This document shows positions 35,353 through 42,509 of a stretch of 49,170 nt of DNA, piece after piece. The position numbers and the translations under genes were made by a program. Origin of the DNA: Kofleriaceae bacterium. Its GTDB lineage: Bacteria > Myxococcota_A > Polyangia > Haliangiales > Haliangiaceae. The stretch lies in NCBI GenBank assembly GCA_018057825.1, contig JAGPCY010000054.1:1-49170 (forward strand). The letters are read 5' to 3'. A model generated the notes under the pieces. It saw only the letters and a list, made by a program, of their open reading frames with translations, had not been told where the DNA came from and searched no databases. How positions within the stretch are numbered: the first letter of the stretch is position 1; each line of letters begins with the position of its first letter.

Positions 35353-36717
35353 TCACCCGGGTTGCGCCGGCTTCACGAGCACCCCAGCCCCGGGCGGGCG
35401 ACGCTCGTAGACCCGACGCCACTGCCCACTCGGATCGCGGAGCGCCGCGACCCGGGACTGCCAGCCGAAGTCCAGGACCGGCACGACCCGGATCACGTCG
35501 GGGACCCCCGTGAAGGTGACCTCGCCCCGCACCGAGCCGCCGGGCGGCACCACCACCGACGGGTTCGGCGTGCGGTCCTTCACGATCGAGCTCGGCGGCA
35601 CGCGCACCGTGGTCGTAACCGAGGTCGTGGTCGGCTCATCGGTCGTGCGACGGCCGCCGCCGATCTGGGGCTCTCGGATGGTCACCTCCGGCCAATCTCC
35701 ACGCCGCCCGGGTCCCGCCACGACCGTCGTGGCGCGACCGCGGATCACGAAGGGACCGACCTCACCGATGCCGCGGTTGCCGAGCTGAAACCCAACCGTG
35801 ACGTCACGACGCGCCCGCGACGCCACCGCCGACACCTCGACCACGGCCGGCGATGGCGCGGCCGCGGCGTACGGCGTCAGCGACAACCCGACCAGCTTCC
35901 AGGAACTGCCCGACAGCTCCAGTCCCTGGACCGACGTCGGAGCTGCCAGGCCGCCGTCGAGCACCACGGTCAGCGTCACCTCCGAGGTCCAGGTGCCGAC
36001 GTCCCCGGGAACACCGCCGACCGCGGTGATCGGCTGGTTGGGATCGTAGACGTAGAGTTCGATGACCTGCGAGCCGGCCGCGAGCGGATGCACCACGGCG
36101 CCGTAGGCGACCAGACAATGGCTCGAGAACGGGTCGTCACCATCCTGGTGGATCAGGATCGGTGTGGGAACGTCGTTGCGCAGAGCCGTGACCAGACGCA
36201 CGACCTCCCGCGCCGAGCGTCGGCGCACCGCGTTGACCGACCGCGTCCGCTGTACCAGCTTGGTCTCGATCGCGGTCCACGCCGCGCCGGCCTTCCAGGC
36301 CGCGAGGTGGCGCTGCAGCAGGTTCTTGCGCACCGCCGCCTCCTCGGGCGTGCCGTGCCGCGTCGGGATTCGGCCGGGACTCCCGCGGGTGCTCGGTTGC
36401 CGCGCGTGATACGCGTCGAGGGCGCAGAAGCACATGCCACAGCAAAACGCCGGCCTCGCGGCATCCAGCTTGGTGTAGCCGGCCAGCCATTCCACCAGGC
36501 GATCGCGGACCTGGGGGATGGCGAGGAACGGGCCGGCCAGCAAGAGCCCATCGAACAGGGCATCGACGAGCGGCAGGCGGAAGCCCAGTGACGCCAGCGC
36601 CGCCTGCTTGACGACCTCGAGGATAGCCTCGGCCTCATCCTCGTCGATCGACCAGTTGCTGTTGCTGAACGCGAAGGCATCGACGGCCGGCGAGAAGCCG
36701 GTCAACAGGTATTCCAT
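35353..36717 (-). CDS. Papain-fold-like protein with C-terminal Ig-like region, function unknown
   Basis: 454 residues from ATG 36717; GAGGAG lies 6 bases upstream. Residues about 85-235 look like a papain/C39-type cysteine-peptidase fold: CCGMCFCALDAYHAR (candidate Cys near 92-96), SSHCLVAYGAVV (His near 199) and ELYVYDPNQP (Asp/Asn near 224). These line up with a Cys-His-Asn/Asp triad, but no homologue can be verified here. The C-terminal 200 residues are beta-rich: VEVSAVASRARRDVTVGFQ and VRGEVTFTGVPDVIRVVPVL look like Ig-like or CARDB-type strands. There is no signal peptide. It pairs with the next gene upstream (98 bp gap). Confidence 0.6.
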   Translation of the reverse strand: MEYLLTGFSPAVDAFAFSNSNWSIDEDEAEAILEVVKQAALASLGFRLPLVDALFDGLLLAGPFLAIPQVRDRLVEWLAGYTKLDAARPAFCCGMCFCALDAYHARQPSTRGSPGRIPTRHGTPEEAAVRKNLLQRHLAAWKAGAAWTAIETKLVQRTRSVNAVRRRSAREVVRLVTALRNDVPTPILIHQDGDDPFSSHCLVAYGAVVHPLAAGSQVIELYVYDPNQPITAVGGVPGDVGTWTSEVTLTVVLDGGLAAPTSVQGLELSGSSWKLVGLSLTPYAAAAPSPAVVEVSAVASRARRDVTVGFQLGNRGIGEVGPFVIRGRATTVVAGPGRRGDWPEVTIREPQIGGGRRTTDEPTTTSVTTTVRVPPSSIVKDRTPNPSVVVPPGGSVRGEVTFTGVPDVIRVVPVLDFGWQSRVAALRDPSGQWRRVYERRPPGAGVLVKPAQPG

Positions 36718-36815
36718 GGTGTTCTCCTCGAGCGCCGAGCACGCGGCGCGATGCAGTTGGCGATGCGCACGGTCATGAACCGGGCGCCATCCGGGTTCGG
36801 GTCGACGACCTACGC

Positions 36816-37433
36816 TCAGCCGAGGGCGTCGGTGAGCGCGTCGATCTGGGCCACTAGGCGAGTGCCGATCGCGACCGTCAGCGCACCGCGCACCTCGGGA
36901 TCGACGATGCGGGCAGCCACGTTGTAGGCCTGGAGCGTGCCCAGGACGTCGAGCAAGCCGGCGGCGCGCCCCGGCATCGGGTTCGACAGCAGGTCCCGGC
37001 CCCAGGCCGGGTCGGCGACGGCCGGCGTCAGCGGATCGAGCCCATCCGCCCGCGGCGGCCACGGTCGCCGCCACGGCCACTCGGGGCACGGATCGACGTC
37101 CCAGCGGAAGCGCGCGCCGCGGGCGAGGACCGGCGCGGCGTCGCGCAGGTGACCGAGCGCCACCGCGCGGACCTCCCGCGCCATGCGGCCATCGGACCAC
37201 CCGAAGGACTGCGCCCACAGGGTCAACGCCTGATAGCTGCGATCGGCAGCCAGGAGCTCGATCGGGCTCTCACCGCCGAGGATCGCCCACGGCCAGCGCC
37301 GGCGCGGCCACCACGGCGGACAGAGATCGTCGCCCCACTCCCAGCCCGCCGACGGACGGGTCAAGCGCCGCGCGGCGGTGGTGGTGAACGTGGACGCATC
37401 GGCAGACACGGCTTCTTGGTTCTTGTCGCTCAT
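36816..37433 (-). CDS. Conserved-looking protein of unknown function, Trp-rich
   Basis: 205 residues from ATG 37433; GAGGAA lies about 6 bases upstream. It has an unusually aromatic first half (GWEWGDDLCPPWWPRRRWPWA) and a second Trp cluster, WDVDPCPEWPWRRPWPPRA. The C-terminal 70 residues are helical. No signal peptide, membrane helix or known motif. It lies upstream of the papain-like gene on the same strand, so the two may act together. Trp/Pro/Arg clusters can be binding surfaces, but no function is claimed. Confidence 0.65.
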   Translation of the reverse strand: MSDKNQEAVSADASTFTTTAARRLTRPSAGWEWGDDLCPPWWPRRRWPWAILGGESPIELLAADRSYQALTLWAQSFGWSDGRMAREVRAVALGHLRDAAPVLARGARFRWDVDPCPEWPWRRPWPPRADGLDPLTPAVADPAWGRDLLSNPMPGRAAGLLDVLGTLQAYNVAARIVDPEVRGALTVAIGTRLVAQIDALTDALG

Positions 37434-37623: not shown

Positions 37624-39360
37624 CTACGGGATCGGACCGGGCGGCGGTTCGGCGAGGTTGCGCAGACAGGTCTCGCGGTCAGCGAACAGGTCGCAGGGAT
37701 GATTCAGGTAGGTCGTGAGCGGGTACTGCCAGTCCTGGGTGCGCGCGGGCAAGGTCGCCGGCAACGCGGACCCGATCCGACTGCGGCAGACCGCGGCGGT
37801 CGACCGATCGCTGCCGACGCTACATTGCCCGGGCACCGTCCGGGCCGCAGCCGGCAGACAGGGCCGTCCAGCGACACACGCCCGCGGCGCCGCGGCGACG
37901 GTAGGGTCACACGCGCCCGGGGGATTGCCGAAGCAGCCCTCGGGGAGCGCGGCCACCGGACCGGCGCACAAGCGATGACTGAGCATCGCGTTGTCCGCGG
38001 ACCACACGTCGGAGTAGCACGCGAACTGCGAGTCGAAGAGCGCCTTGGCGTCGCCCTCGGGCGTGAAGATCTCAGCTCCATCGGGTGGCGGAGGCATCGG
38101 CACGAACAGGTTTCCGTAGAACGAGCCCTCGCGGTACGTGAACACCTCGGCCTCGGTTGCCGGGTACGCGGCGAGCGCCGTGCCGCCCGCGGACGGGGCC
38201 GCGACCTCGCGCAGGCGCACCGCCAGCTCGGCGGGGTCGAGGGCGCGGCCATCGCGGGCGCGGTACATCACGGCGAAGTAGCCGGTGGCCTGGCCTTCGA
38301 CCGCGGGGCCGTTGTTCGGGCAGTCGAACGAACGATCGCCGTCGTGCGGGATGACCCCGCCGGCGTAGAACGGCGGGTTCGGGCCGGCGAGCTGCGTGCG
38401 TGGACTCGCCGCGCTATCGCAGCCGTAGACGCCGGCGCAGACGCGGAGCTCGATCCGGCGCGGCGTCGCGACCTCGAGAGTCACACGGCGACCGGCGGTG
38501 CAGCGGCCGACGTAGTGCGGCTGCCAATCGCAGTTTCGTCGCGGGTCGCCGCCCGGCGCGGTCGCACACGGCGCGAAGCTGACGATCGGCGTGCCGCGGT
38601 CCTCGCGGAACATCGTGTTGACCGGCACCCGATCGGCGAGGTCGGTGCCGTCGCCGCGCAAGGAGATCTGGACCCGGGCGTCGACCGCGTTGGTGCGGGC
38701 GAGGAGACATGCCGACACCCGCTGGAGGCAGGCCTCGCCCTCGCCGCCGGCCACGACCTGCCAGCCGTCGGGGGCCGAGGTCGCCGGCGCGGCCGTGGTC
38801 CAGCGAAACGCTGGGACCGCCGCGCGCCGGGTCAAGCGGGCGTGGCGCTCGCTGCACAACCCGAGCTCGCCGACGAAGACCTTGGTGCCCTGGTCCGCGG
38901 CGACGCCGGTGAGGACCGCCTTGTCGACCAGCCGCGTGGCCTGATCGGCCGGTAGGTCGGGTGGCGCGTCGATCCACTCGCACGGGTCGAGGGCGCAGCG
39001 CGCGATGTACTCGGTCAGATCGACGGCGTGATCGCCGGCCAGGAGCGACGCCCGGCTCGGCTCGGCGAACAAGGTCGGCGTGAGCGGATGGGTGACCAGC
39101 GCTTGGAAGAGCGCCTGGGTGCTCTGCAACGTCTGGTAGTCGAGGCCATTCATCGGCAGGCTATTCATCGGCAGGCTGTTCATCGGCAGGCTGTTCGAGA
39201 CCGGGCCCGCCGCGCAGATCCCCGGTGCGGGCGGCGGCGACGGCGGCGGTGGCGGCGAGCGATGACACGCGACCAGCGCGACGGCGACGAAGGTTGCGAC
39301 TCCGCCAATCGGGTGGCAGCGGGAAGCCGCGGCGGAGGCAGGGGCGAGACGGGACGACAT
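37624..39360 (-). CDS. Large lipoprotein with LPMNS repeats
   Basis: 578 residues from ATG 39360; AAGG lies 6 bases upstream. The signal peptide ends VAVALVACH (lipobox VAC). A Pro-rich linker (PPPPPSPPPAPG) leads to three tandem NSLPM units at about residues 57-71, a repeat encoded by exact 15-bp DNA copies. The rest, with about 20 cysteines, includes LTEYIARCALDPCEWID, a segment VTLEVATPRRIELRVCAGVY and a Cys/Pro-rich C-terminus. I know of similar short N-x-L repeats in myxobacterial lipoproteins but cannot name the domain. It sits between the Trp-rich gene and the kinase. Confidence 0.7.
   Translation of the reverse strand: MSSRLAPASAAASRCHPIGGVATFVAVALVACHRSPPPPPSPPPAPGICAAGPVSNSLPMNSLPMNSLPMNGLDYQTLQSTQALFQALVTHPLTPTLFAEPSRASLLAGDHAVDLTEYIARCALDPCEWIDAPPDLPADQATRLVDKAVLTGVAADQGTKVFVGELGLCSERHARLTRRAAVPAFRWTTAAPATSAPDGWQVVAGGEGEACLQRVSACLLARTNAVDARVQISLRGDGTDLADRVPVNTMFREDRGTPIVSFAPCATAPGGDPRRNCDWQPHYVGRCTAGRRVTLEVATPRRIELRVCAGVYGCDSAASPRTQLAGPNPPFYAGGVIPHDGDRSFDCPNNGPAVEGQATGYFAVMYRARDGRALDPAELAVRLREVAAPSAGGTALAAYPATEAEVFTYREGSFYGNLFVPMPPPPDGAEIFTPEGDAKALFDSQFACYSDVWSADNAMLSHRLCAGPVAALPEGCFGNPPGACDPTVAAAPRACVAGRPCLPAAARTVPGQCSVGSDRSTAAVCRSRIGSALPATLPARTQDWQYPLTTYLNHPCDLFADRETCLRNLAEPPPGPIP
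39148..39192 (-). repeat. Three 15-bp tandem repeats encoding NSLPM
   Basis: Three copies of (A/G)TTCATCGGCAGGCT on the + strand, differing only at the first base. They encode the NSLPM repeat in the lipoprotein and end in NGL. Near-identity suggests recent duplication. Confidence 0.95.
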
Positions 39361-39509
39361 GACGGACCTTTCTATCTGAGCCGCCTGAGCCATCAGCACG
39401 CGGCGTGCCAGGCCCATCGCGTGCCGCCACCCGCGCCAGACCTTGGGGGACGGGGCTCGACCGCGCGCGGCGTTGCGCTCGGGTTGCGCTGTGACGTCAC
39501 CGTTGCACC
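39361..39509. promoter_or_regulatory. 149-bp gap with TGACGTCA palindrome
   Basis: Between the kinase stop and the lipoprotein start, both minus strand. GTGACGTCAC at 39491-39500 is a 10-bp perfect palindrome lying 10 bp after the kinase stop, flanked by GTTGC on both sides. It could be an operator for the lipoprotein or part of a termination site. No other feature seen. Confidence 0.3.
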
Positions 39510-42509
39510 TCACCGGGCCAGCCGCCGCAGCTCGGTCAGCAGCGGGAACTCGGTCGACGACAGCTTCCACGCGTCCACGACCTCACCGGCCAACGCGCGC
39601 GCCGCGATGCGGTCGCCACGATCGGCGGCCGCAAGCGCCGCCCGGGCCATCGCCGCGCTGGCGCCAGCCCACCGCGGGGCCTTGCTCACGACCAGGTCGA
39701 TGAACGCCGGCTCGTCGGCCGCCGCGAACGCCTCCACCATCGCCTGCGCCAGCAGCCCGACGCCTTGGTCCTCAGTGGCCGCGATCGTGCGCCACGCCCG
39801 GACCGCGCCCCGCAGGTCGCGCGCCGCGAAGGCCCGGGCCCCGTCGACCAGCGCCGACAGCGGCGTGGGCTGGGCGGGCCGCACCCACTCGCCGGGCAAG
39901 AGCGCGAAGCATCGCTCGCGCTGGTCGTCGTCGGCGTACGCGCACACCGCCGCTAGGTTGCGAAAGCCGGCGACGTCCACGGGCACCTGACTCGACGAAG
40001 GCCCGGCCAGCACCGCGGCGACCACCTGGCGCCTCCGCGGTCGATCGTCGAGGAGCACCGCGAGCTGCATCGCCTCCACGGCGGCGACCAGGCGCAGGTC
40101 GTGGGTCCAGCCGGCGTCGTCGGGCCGTGAGGGCACCTGCTCGGCCAGGCGAGCGAGCGCCTCGACGAAGCGGGCCTCGGCGACGTCGAGTCTGGCCGCG
40201 AAGATCGCGGCCTGGAGGCGCTGGACCGGCGCCTCACCGGTCGCCAGCCGCGCCGCGACCCGGTGGGCGTCGCCCAACCGACCGGCGGCGAGCAAGGCGT
40301 CGTACCAGGCGGTCGCCACGACGGTGTTGAACGGCGCGAGCAGGTAGGCCCGCTCGGCGCCACCACCGACCGGGCCGGTCGCCAACCACCAGTGGTATGG
40401 ATGCCAGGGCCGCCAGCCCTGCCCCGCGATCGCCACCTGGCCTTGCCGCGCGCCCCCGGCGGTGACGGCCGTGAGCTGCTCCCACGGCGCGCACCATTCG
40501 CCGATTGGGTTCTTGGGCTCGGCCTCGATGGCGAGGAGCGACCACGAGGTCGCGCGCTCGACGTCCTCGGTCTCCCACAGACACGACAGCGTCGTCGCGA
40601 TCGTCGACCGCGCCCAGCTCGTCGTCGCCAGCGCGTACGCGGTCGTCAGGGCGTCGCGGGCGGACACGTCGTCGCGGCGATGCACCATGTGCTCGATCCG
40701 GGCGCGGAGCGCGCGTTCGCCATCGGTGGCGACCGCCGCGGGCAACACCACGGGGGGGATGCGATAGCCGAGCGTGTAGGCGCACTCGTGGCGCGCGAAG
40801 TCGAGGCGCAATGTCGAGACGCGAGGCTCGGCGAGGAACGCCGCGCACGCCCGGCCGACCTGGCCGGCGTTCTGGGCGAAGCCGAGGGTGAGATCGAGCA
40901 GCTCGAGCTGAGTCGGCAGGCCGGCGGCGCCGACGTAGTCGGCGATCGTGGGGTCGGCGACCGCCGCCCACGGCAGCGCGCCCGTCGCGATCATCGGCGC
41001 CATCGCCGCGCGCACCGCGTCGATCAGCGCGACGCCCTCCCCCTGCGACGGCGCTCCGAGCGCACCGCGCGGGCCGTAGAGCGCGAGCTCGACGCGAAAA
41101 CCGCCGGCGGTGGCCTGCACCTTGCCGTCGAGGTAGGCCGCCTGGCGACGCGCCGCTCCCAGCGAGCGCTGGCGGGCCGCGACGCCGGCGAACGGTTCGA
41201 CGGGGAAGTCCTCGGCGGGGGCCGGTGGCAGGCCGAGCAGCTCGGCCGGCAGCCGGGTCCGAGCCGGCTGACCGCCGAGGATCACCCGCGCGCGCTCGCA
41301 GACCAGCGACGCCGCCGCAGCGCCGAGCCAGCCGTCGCGCTCCGGCACGTCGACCGCGAGGATCGGGCAGGCGAGCACCGCCTCGGGCCGCGCCAACGGC
41401 GACCTCGACCCGGCGGCGCCGCCGCGGCCGCGGCCGAGGGCGATCGCCCCCGCGCCGACGACACCGACGACCGCGACCAGCCAGCCGATCCGTCGCCACC
41501 GACGGAGCGCCGCCCACCCGCGCGCGCGCCGGGTCACCCTCGCCGGCGTGGCCGCCTCGGTGCGACCGTCGCGCGGCGCGGTGGGGGCGGCGACCTCGTC
41601 GGGCGGAGGCCCGTCGTCGGCGCCCGTGACCTCGGCCAAGCACGGCGGCGCGGCGGTGCCGAGGGCCACCGCCAAGGCGTGGATCGCGGCGACCGATGAC
41701 GGGAACCGCCGCCCTGGATCAGACGCGGTCGCGCGCGCGAACCAGCGGTCGAAGCCCGGCGGGAGCTCGACCCCGAGGGCGCGGGCTCGCACCGTGGCTG
41801 GCTCACGCGGCCCGTCGACGATCCGCAGTCCGAAGGCGATCGGGTCGAGGTCCTCCGCCTCGATCCAATAGCCGCGCCCGACCAAGAGCGCGTAGGCGAT
41901 GAGCCCGAGCGCGTGGCGATCGGTGGCCGCCGTGACCCCTCGGCCCCGAAGCTGCTCGGGCGCCATGAAGGCAGGCGTCCCGGCGACCCCGGTGGTGTCG
42001 CCCGCGCCCGGGCCGAGCACCTTGGCGATCCCCAGGTCCAGCACCTTGAGGCGCGAGGCCTCACCTGCTCGGGCGTGGAGGAACAGGTTCGCCGGCTTGA
42101 GATCGCGGTGGACCACGCCTGCCGCGTGCATGCGATCGAGCGCGAGCGCGAGCTGACCGAGGTGGTCGACGACCTCGGGTGCCGGGCGCGGCCCCAGGCG
42201 CGCCGTGCGTTGCGCCAGGCTCTCGCCCACCAGGCGCTCCATCACCAGGTACGGGTGACCACGCTCGGCCTCGACCCCGGCGTCGACGACGTCGACCAGA
42301 TAGGGGCTGTCGATCCGCCCGCCCAGGCGGGCCTCGAGCGCGAAGCGCTCGCGAAGCTCGGCCTGCTCGACGAAGTGTCCGTGCAGCACCTTCAGCGCAC
42401 GCGCCCGTCCCAGCAGGGTGTCCTCGACCTCGTAGACCGTGCCCATCCCACCGCGACCGAGCACGGTCCCGACCCGATATCGGCCCGCGAACAGCTCACC
42501 GGGCTTCAT
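39510..42509 (-). CDS. Transmembrane Ser/Thr protein kinase with large C-terminal domain
   Basis: 999 residues from ATG 42509. The kinase domain (about 1-275) has GRGGMGTVYEVED (glycine loop), ALKVLHGHF (Lys), HRDLKPANLFL (catalytic loop), LDLGIAKVL (DLG in place of DFG) and GTPAFMAPEQL. A linker and one membrane helix follow at about 345-368 (GWLVAVVGVVGAGAIALG). The remaining 630 residues are helical and TPR-like in composition, with Trp-rich stretches, and probably lie outside the cytoplasm. It may feed phosphothreonine marks to FHA proteins such as the regulator at 33950, which is inference. Confidence 0.93.
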   Translation of the reverse strand: MKPGELFAGRYRVGTVLGRGGMGTVYEVEDTLLGRARALKVLHGHFVEQAELRERFALEARLGGRIDSPYLVDVVDAGVEAERGHPYLVMERLVGESLAQRTARLGPRPAPEVVDHLGQLALALDRMHAAGVVHRDLKPANLFLHARAGEASRLKVLDLGIAKVLGPGAGDTTGVAGTPAFMAPEQLRGRGVTAATDRHALGLIAYALLVGRGYWIEAEDLDPIAFGLRIVDGPREPATVRARALGVELPPGFDRWFARATASDPGRRFPSSVAAIHALAVALGTAAPPCLAEVTGADDGPPPDEVAAPTAPRDGRTEAATPARVTRRARGWAALRRWRRIGWLVAVVGVVGAGAIALGRGRGGAAGSRSPLARPEAVLACPILAVDVPERDGWLGAAAASLVCERARVILGGQPARTRLPAELLGLPPAPAEDFPVEPFAGVAARQRSLGAARRQAAYLDGKVQATAGGFRVELALYGPRGALGAPSQGEGVALIDAVRAAMAPMIATGALPWAAVADPTIADYVGAAGLPTQLELLDLTLGFAQNAGQVGRACAAFLAEPRVSTLRLDFARHECAYTLGYRIPPVVLPAAVATDGERALRARIEHMVHRRDDVSARDALTTAYALATTSWARSTIATTLSCLWETEDVERATSWSLLAIEAEPKNPIGEWCAPWEQLTAVTAGGARQGQVAIAGQGWRPWHPYHWWLATGPVGGGAERAYLLAPFNTVVATAWYDALLAAGRLGDAHRVAARLATGEAPVQRLQAAIFAARLDVAEARFVEALARLAEQVPSRPDDAGWTHDLRLVAAVEAMQLAVLLDDRPRRRQVVAAVLAGPSSSQVPVDVAGFRNLAAVCAYADDDQRERCFALLPGEWVRPAQPTPLSALVDGARAFAARDLRGAVRAWRTIAATEDQGVGLLAQAMVEAFAAADEPAFIDLVVSKAPRWAGASAAMARAALAAADRGDRIAARALAGEVVDAWKLSSTEFPLLTELRRLAR

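What the first reader, a model, noticed from the sequence alone, without database searches (positions are those of the whole stretch)
35353..36717. Possible cysteine peptidase-like fold without signal peptide
Spacing of CCGMC, SSHCLVAYG and YVYDPNQP matches a Cys-His-Asn/Asp arrangement, followed by Ig-like strands. The protein lacks a signal peptide although the Ig-like region is usually extracellular. It may be a toxin-like or secreted effector exported by another route.
Basis: inference. Interest (0 to 1): 0.5.

Follow-up and report, generated by a model that had tools for sequence, protein, structure and literature searches.

The report
Divergent papain-like enzyme, unlisted family
The gene codes for a papain-like, cysteine-based enzyme fold that belongs, as an unusual outlier, to a scattered bacterial protein family without an entry in the domain catalogues searched, some of whose members are fused to sugar-binding modules and most of which show no obvious export signal.

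Summary
The ORF at 35353-36717 (-) is 454 aa, starts behind a GAGGAG box and has strong codon-position bias. No library names it, but it belongs to a bacterial family marked by an N-terminal F-x-F-x-N, then C-x-x-M, H and YDPN. A profile built without it or its own-genome paralog scores it 48.0 bits; 500 shuffles and unrelated window ORFs reach 2.2 at most. AlphaFold puts Cys92 at the start of a helix, His200 on a strand and Asp225 after the next strand. The best structural matches are papain-like: BtaeB, staphopains, IdeS, cathepsins, Z 9.5-6.5. A typical member models at pLDDT 94.8.

Lack of a signal peptide looks like a family trait: 1 of 43 entries has a strongly hydrophobic stretch before the domain (hydropathy only). 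The 'Ig-like' tail is not supported: confidence there is below 50. Some relatives carry ricin-B, MIR, DUF346 or weak B-lectin modules. The protein has the longest branch in the family tree and departs at six of 25 conserved columns, but keeps the presumed triad.

Most likely an intact thiol hydrolase without classical export. Toxicity is untested. New variant of a known kind.

The parts
35353..36717 (-). Whole gene, 454 aa plus stop
   Evidence: codon-position GC 0.708/0.538/0.873 and GAGGAG box upstream of ATG
36724..36729 (-). GAGGAG, ribosome-binding-site-like, 6 bases before the ATG
   Evidence: sequence printed
36661..36696 (-). F8-x-P10 ... F17-x-N19, N-terminal signature of the family
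   Evidence: F8 43 of 45, P10 42 of 44, F17 44 of 45, N19 44 of 45 other rows with a letter there
36508..36660 (-). Residues 20-70: mostly helical insertion between FxFxN and the Cys block
   Evidence: gapped in the 23 other rows displayed of alignment A2 (one search shows one row in two); helices 26-43 and 48-57, block pLDDT 43-75
36442..36444 (-). Cys92, presumed nucleophile, start of core helix 92-104
   Evidence: Cys in 46 of 46 others, a set that I had filtered for CGGM; helix start in the model
36118..36120 (-). His200, presumed catalytic base, on strand 199-211
   Evidence: its invariance in the collected set is forced by the search pattern, but it also aligns in profile-found relatives
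36043..36045 (-). Asp225 of YDPN, presumed third residue, just after strand 217-224 (Asn227 is the alternative)
   Evidence: same caution about the search pattern
35857..36717 (-). Papain-like domain, residues 1-287
   Evidence: structure matches span model residues 1-287
35356..35856 (-). Residues 288-454, C-terminal region of unknown fold
   Evidence: pLDDT under 50 for 293-428 and 432-454; no Pfam match
36816..37433 (-). Upstream ORF, 205 aa, same strand, 98-base gap; no relative found; co-transcription possible but not shown

Best explanation
The gene encodes a divergent member of a bacterial family of papain-like thiol hydrolases that the domain libraries, as far as scanned, do not list. 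Shown: family membership by profile, papain-like topology in the model, a retained Cys92/His200/Asp225 order, and no signal-like hydrophobic start. Inferred: Cys92 at the helix start attacks a carbonyl, most likely of a peptide or isopeptide bond; His200 takes its proton; Asp225 (or Asn227) holds the histidine. The protein folds in the cytoplasm and acts there, or outside after lysis or non-Sec delivery; the C-terminal 165 or so residues probably set target or position. The lectin-type modules in some relatives suggest that such members act on glycan-bearing partners.
For: Profile without the protein or its paralog: 48.0 bits against 2.2 for the best unrelated control. Own-genome search with alignment A2, which includes both: 110 bits, and 168.6 for the paralog. 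Presumed triad kept although 6 of 25 conserved columns changed. Papain topology in the model. VIA matches: BtaeB CTD Z 9.5 (rmsd 4.2, 167 aligned), staphopains 8.0-7.7, TDE0362 7.7-7.1, IdeS 7.3-6.9, cathepsin B 6.7-6.6. Typical member L061: pLDDT 94.8, pTM 0.91, with BtaeB 9.4, IdeS 8.1, TDE0362 8.1, staphopain 7.8, SpeB 7.7 and a C39-like peptidase, 3erv, 7.5. Three profile-found relatives (L068, L069, L070) keep FxFxN, CxxM, H and YDxN. Lectin-type modules over cut-off in L012, L020, L024 and L037. Signal-like stretch in 1 of 43.
Against: Foldseek gives no E-value of 0.001 or better for either model, and most Z lie between 6 and 8, a range the tool calls common. The protein lost Gln next to His (Q201C), Gly after Cys (G93C) and Tyr207, has by far the longest branch (3.63, median 0.44), and could be inactive. 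No close relative was found in 94 related genomes (one hit at E 6e-4 was rejected as chance) or in the other 376 genomes of the phylum sample, so selection cannot be measured. Neither substrate nor secretion is shown. The window protein has no recognisable lectin module.
Confidence: 0.62

Rival explanations
1. Pseudoenzyme: the papain-like domain has lost catalysis and serves as a binding or regulatory scaffold.
For: Six departures at columns conserved in the 46 other rows, two of them beside presumed catalytic residues (G93C, Q201C); longest branch, 3.63; extra cysteines 93, 98 and 201, found in none of the other 46 rows (all).
Against: Cys92, His200, Asp225 and Asn227 are all kept; the frame is intact with normal codon bias; distant profile-found relatives also vary at positions 93 and 201.
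Confidence: 0.22
2. Interbacterial toxin or effector, with the upstream 205-aa ORF as its immunity protein, delivered without Sec.
For: Fold matches include the type VI effector BtaeB (Z 9.5) and a papain-like toxin of a toxin/immunity pair, 9l5u (Z 5.7); adjacent orphan ORF on the same strand; the genome carries sheath and tube genes of contractile-injection type.
Against: No VipB gene in the genome, so no type VI system seen; the contractile loci are on other contigs; the upstream ORF has no relative in 94 other genomes or in the loci held; only a lineage-specific recurrent neighbour was recognised near relatives, in a comparison confused by overlapping frames; the ORF lies upstream, whereas immunity genes usually follow (recalled).
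Confidence: 0.15
3. Housekeeping C39-type processing peptidase of a peptide export system.
For: Sub-threshold Peptidase_C39_2 match in 2 of 47 rows, the own-genome paralog and L024; C39-like 3erv at Z 7.5 for the typical member.
Against: The window protein itself has no C39 match; it has no transporter domain, and none was found in the eight ORFs (seven of them in this window); some relatives carry lectin-type modules instead.
Confidence: 0.05

Closest known systems
Papain-like (clan CA) cysteine peptidases: BtaeB CTD, staphopain, IdeS, SpeB, cathepsins
   Same: Cys at the start of the core helix, His on a strand, polar residue after the next strand; best VIA matches, Z 9.5-6.5 and 9.4-6.3
   Different: 7-14% identity in the rows cited; no significant Foldseek E-value; own signature F-x-F-x-N ... 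CxxM ... H ... YDPN
Peptidase_C39_2 (PF13529) / C39-like peptidase 3erv
   Same: The His and Asp half of the paralog and of L024 matches weakly (E 0.0015 and 0.0037); 3erv at Z 7.5 for L061
   Different: 2 of 47 rows match, both below the curated cut-off; the window protein has no match
Fungal chimerolectins such as MOA (papain-like domain plus beta-trefoil lectin)
   Same: Papain-like domain and lectin-type module in one protein, in some relatives; cytoplasmic localisation is reported for fungal defence lectins (PMC13324453, passages)
   Different: MOA has a Cys-His dyad anchored by Glu and is activated by Ca or Mn (PMC8244254, passages); no Pfam family matched the window protein, and it has no lectin module
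Papain-like polymorphic toxins Tox-PL1/2/3, Tox-PLC39 (PMC3482391, passages)
   Same: Fold class and C-H-D order; CdiA 8ssm aligns weakly over the Cys block (E 1.4)
   Different: No polymorphic-toxin architecture recognised in this protein; no significant sequence match

Membership tests
[quoted passage not shown]
   Cys92 opens helix 92-104; Cys51 opens 51-63 in L061
Papain-like cysteine peptidase superfamily | His on a core strand and a third polar residue on or after the next strand | tested here: met
   His200 on strand 199-211, Asp225 right after 217-224; inter-residue distances could not be measured
Papain-like cysteine peptidase superfamily | Structural similarity to solved members | tested here: met
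   The highest VIA rows are papain-like, Z 9.5-6.5 and 9.4-6.3; Foldseek E-values not significant
Papain-like cysteine peptidase superfamily | Thiol-dependent hydrolysis | not testable with these tools
   needs protein
Unlisted CxxM/YDPN family defined here | Match to the profile of other members | tested here: met
   48.0 bits, best unrelated control 2.2
Unlisted CxxM/YDPN family defined here | All strongly conserved columns kept | tested here: not met
   19 of 25 kept; departs at A90, C93, A140, C201, L202, A207; distant profile-found relatives also vary at 93 and 201, so the protein is called an outlier, not a typical member
Peptidase_C39_2 (PF13529) | Match over the curated cut-off | tested here: not met
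   no match in the window protein; 2 of 47 rows, both sub-threshold
MOA-type chimerolectins | Lectin module in the same protein as the papain-like domain | tested here: not met
   no Pfam family in the window protein at E up to 10; the C-terminal fold is unresolved
Type VI effector | Type VI secretion system in the genome | tested here: not met
   PF05943: 0 of 1 genome (genome 99.69% complete)
Toxin-immunity pair | Adjacent neutralising partner | not testable with these tools
   upstream ORF present but without relatives found

The most novel reading that the evidence does not exclude
The family is a bacterial counterpart of the fungal chimerolectins: signal-less papain-like enzymes, repeatedly joined to different sugar-binding modules, stored in the cytoplasm and released on lysis or predation (or loaded into contractile injection particles) to enter and damage glycan-bearing cells. 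The window protein would be a fast-evolving member whose lectin has been replaced by an unknown C-terminal targeting domain.
Probability: 0.15. Interest if true: 0.75.

Novelty: new variant of a known kind. Interest (0 to 1): 0.42.

Why it matters
A papain-like enzyme family with members under eleven phylum labels (tree) has no model over cut-off for its core domain in Pfam (47 rows). NCBIfam was scanned only for the window protein and the paralog. Fusions to lectin-type modules in proteins without an evident signal peptide make a concrete question testable: do bacteria make cytoplasmic lectin-protease proteins as fungi do? The window protein shows how far the family can diverge while keeping the presumed triad.

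Tried and rejected
Direct homology searches with the protein failed: Pfam, NCBIfam, PHROGs, PADLOC, PDB sequences (best E 0.38), plasmids and phages, genome and viral contigs, 94 other related genomes and, with the core domain, the other 376 genomes of the phylum sample. The one weak hit, G047 at E 6e-4, was rejected as chance: the frame looks like another protein, and it is absent when the same genome is searched with the profile. The family was reached by a DNA pattern designed from a motif that I recalled (HQVxAYGY ... YDPN; it comes from no call). It hit the own-genome paralog and 55 loci in genome contigs, of which L054 was rejected as chance. The same pattern found nothing in viral contigs.

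Bias to note: the H..G and YDPN columns are invariant because the pattern demanded most of those letters, and CGGM because my filter did. Nine of 56 entries were dropped before the profile: L054; L019 and L063, which read CGGF and CGGL; and L028, L036, L038, L039, L046, L055, whose matching frames lack the Cys block (in L039 it lies in another frame). The eight other than L054 score 88-230 bits against the A2 profile. L058 looks like a duplicate of L030 (same length and positions); it was left out of alignments A1-A4 but is one of the 46 rows and of the 43 entries. In one search four CGGM entries had no recognisable start motif and were not counted; some others have little sequence before the motif, or a motif hit that is probably misplaced (L027, L047, L060), so 42 of 43 is rough.

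Searching relatives' neighbourhoods gave mostly overlapping shadow frames and one Chloroflexota-only neighbour that looks like DNA ligase D by eye; abandoned. Foldseek in the viral library gave no E-value under 0.1. The C-terminal part was compared with the paralog's: no similarity. The paralog also has a weak NCBIfam match, a mycoplasma cysteine peptidase model, E 0.02, far below cut-off. MOA-type structures do not appear among the VIA rows shown; that absence decides nothing. Paper searches for a description of such a family; none recognised in the listings, within the open-licence library only.

Full report
What is there. The minus-strand ORF 36717-35353 encodes 454 aa. ATG at 36717 follows a GAGGAG box, and codon-position GC is 0.708/0.538/0.873, like the neighbouring ORFs tested. 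A longer reading from a GTG at 37218 exists mechanically, but the family signature begins at residue 8 of the ATG version, so the shorter start is preferred. The protein has no match in Pfam, NCBIfam, PHROGs or PADLOC, no PDB sequence match of note, and none in plasmids, phages, viral contigs or genome contigs. No close relative was found in 94 other related genomes or, with the core domain, in the other 376 of a phylum sample. Those searches score only part of their first-look candidates, so misses are possible.

How the family was found. The arrangement reminded me of a motif that I recalled, HQVxAYGY ... YDPN. A DNA pattern for it hit 1 of 377 phylum genomes, and that one was the window's own: contig C11, 114945. 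The gene there (P0003, 674 aa) starts MPRLAFHPARHGFHFTN, continues with GLCGGM and HQVLAYGYD...YVYDPNYP, and matches Peptidase_C39_2 below cut-off (E 0.0015). The same pattern found 55 loci in genome contigs. 54 of 55 read as family members and L054 does not; all 54 also match the A2 profile, 45 of them being among its rows.

Is the window protein a member? A profile of 46 rows, leaving out this protein and the paralog, scores it 48.0 bits (E 3.7e-14). Controls were 500 shuffles and 242 window ORFs; apart from the same frame the best was 2.2 bits. With alignment A2, which contains both own-genome proteins, the own genome shows two genes at E 0.001: 168.6 bits for the paralog and 110 for this one; 30 of 93 first-look candidates were scored. 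In the phylum sample 9 of 377 genomes match, the own one included and the rest weakly. Of the eight weak loci, found by profile and not by the pattern, L068, L069 and L070 keep FxFxN, CxxM, H and YDxN; L072 has FxYxN instead; L066 has CxxM and H but YDPD; in L067, L071 and L073 only the H ... YDPN half aligns. The window's FAFSN ... CCGM ... H ... YDPN fits this wider circle too.

How divergent is it? Of 25 columns that are at least 90% uniform in the other 46 rows, it keeps 19 and differs at residues 90, 93, 140, 201, 202 and 207. Much of that uniformity is imposed: the pattern demanded most of the H..G and YDPN letters, and my filter demanded CGGM; L019 and L063 read CGGF and CGGL instead. 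It has the longest branch in the tree, 3.63 against a median of 0.44. It carries a mostly helical insertion at about residues 20-70 and extra cysteines at 93, 96, 98 and 201; 93, 98 and 201 have no counterpart in the other 46 rows, and 96 has two.

Structure. AlphaFold with 47 sequences gives mean pLDDT 64.4: mostly 80-98 in the domain core, lower in the insertion and some loops, and under 50 for residues 293-428 and 432-454. Cys92 opens a helix, His200 lies on a strand and Asp225 follows the next strand. VIA-align ranks papain-like proteins highest: BtaeB CTD Z 9.5 (rmsd 4.2, 167 aligned), staphopains 8.0-7.7, TDE0362 7.7-7.1, IdeS 7.3-6.9, cathepsin B 6.7-6.6. The typical member L061 models at pLDDT 94.8, pTM 0.91; its best matches are BtaeB 9.4, IdeS 8.1, TDE0362 8.1, staphopain 7.8, SpeB 7.7, C39-like 3erv 7.5 and cathepsins. 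Foldseek reaches no significant E-value for either model, though the first rows for L061 are papain-like. The tool warns that Z under 8 can mean only a common arrangement; the case rests on the uniform class of the hits plus the position of the conserved Cys, His and Asp. The 2023 survey of the superfamily states that the Cys is always at the N-terminus of the core helix (PMC10318531, section 6). I read its sections 4, 6 and 13 and some passages, not its figures, tables or supplements, and did not recognise this family in them.

Signal peptide and partners. 1 of 43 entries with a recognised start of the domain (L024) has a strongly hydrophobic stretch in the 60 residues before it; the next highest, L032, L042 and L043, are at 1.78 against a threshold of 2.0. 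This is a hydropathy test, not a trained predictor, and some entries have little upstream sequence. Modules in relatives: of 47 trimmed rows scanned, ricin-B in 2, MIR in 2, FG-GAP in 2, DUF346 in 1, sub-threshold C39_2 in 2. Over cut-off I saw ricin-B in L020 and L024, MIR in L012, FG-GAP in L062 and DUF346 in L037. Of 10 longer forms chosen by eye, 4 have B_lectin below cut-off and one more has DUF346 just below. DUF346 marks the Photorhabdus PLL lectins (PMC10481521, passages). The window protein has no such module.

Context. Convergent downstream is an FHA-sigma54 regulator; a LysR gene and tryptophan dioxygenase lie beyond. Upstream on the same strand are the 205-aa orphan ORF, a large ORF with a lipoprotein-like start (by eye) and a Ser/Thr kinase. 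The genome has no VipB (0 of 1) but has sheath and tube genes of contractile-injection type on C20 and C18, not next to this gene.

Judgement. Family membership and fold are well supported. That the enzyme is active is likely but inferred; that it is a toxin or effector is possible and untested. The lack of a signal peptide looks like a trait of the family rather than a peculiarity of this gene.

Noticed in passing
L006:7520-9544 (own genome, contig C11): Paralog P0003: papain-like domain followed by an uncharacterised stretch and weak DUF346/FG-GAP repeats; it lies just downstream of a Ser/Thr kinase-AAA-TPR gene on the same strand.
   Followed up: partly
L009:4074-7823 / L075 (Bradyrhizobium sp. 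Ash2021 plasmid): A family gene appears split in two by an IS256-type transposase; both parts match the profile separately.
   Followed up: no
L078 (own genome, C20:297000-316000) and C18:117342-119318: Sheath and tube genes, on C20 with a baseplate-like ORF by eye, as in extracellular contractile injection systems.
   Followed up: partly
window 37624-39570 (-): Large ORF with a lipoprotein-like N-terminus, SNSLPMNSLPMNSLPMNG repeats and many cysteines; no Pfam, NCBIfam or PHROGs match.
   Followed up: no
window 36816-37433 (-): 205-aa Trp/Pro-rich ORF without relatives in 94 other genomes or in the loci held.
   Followed up: partly
L018, L031, L037, L057: N-terminal bulb-lectin-like repeats directly before the papain-like domain, sub-threshold B_lectin.
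   Followed up: partly
L066, L068, L069, L070, L072: Wider circle of distant relatives in the window's phylum: CxxM and H in all five, FxFxN in three and YDxN in four.
   Followed up: partly
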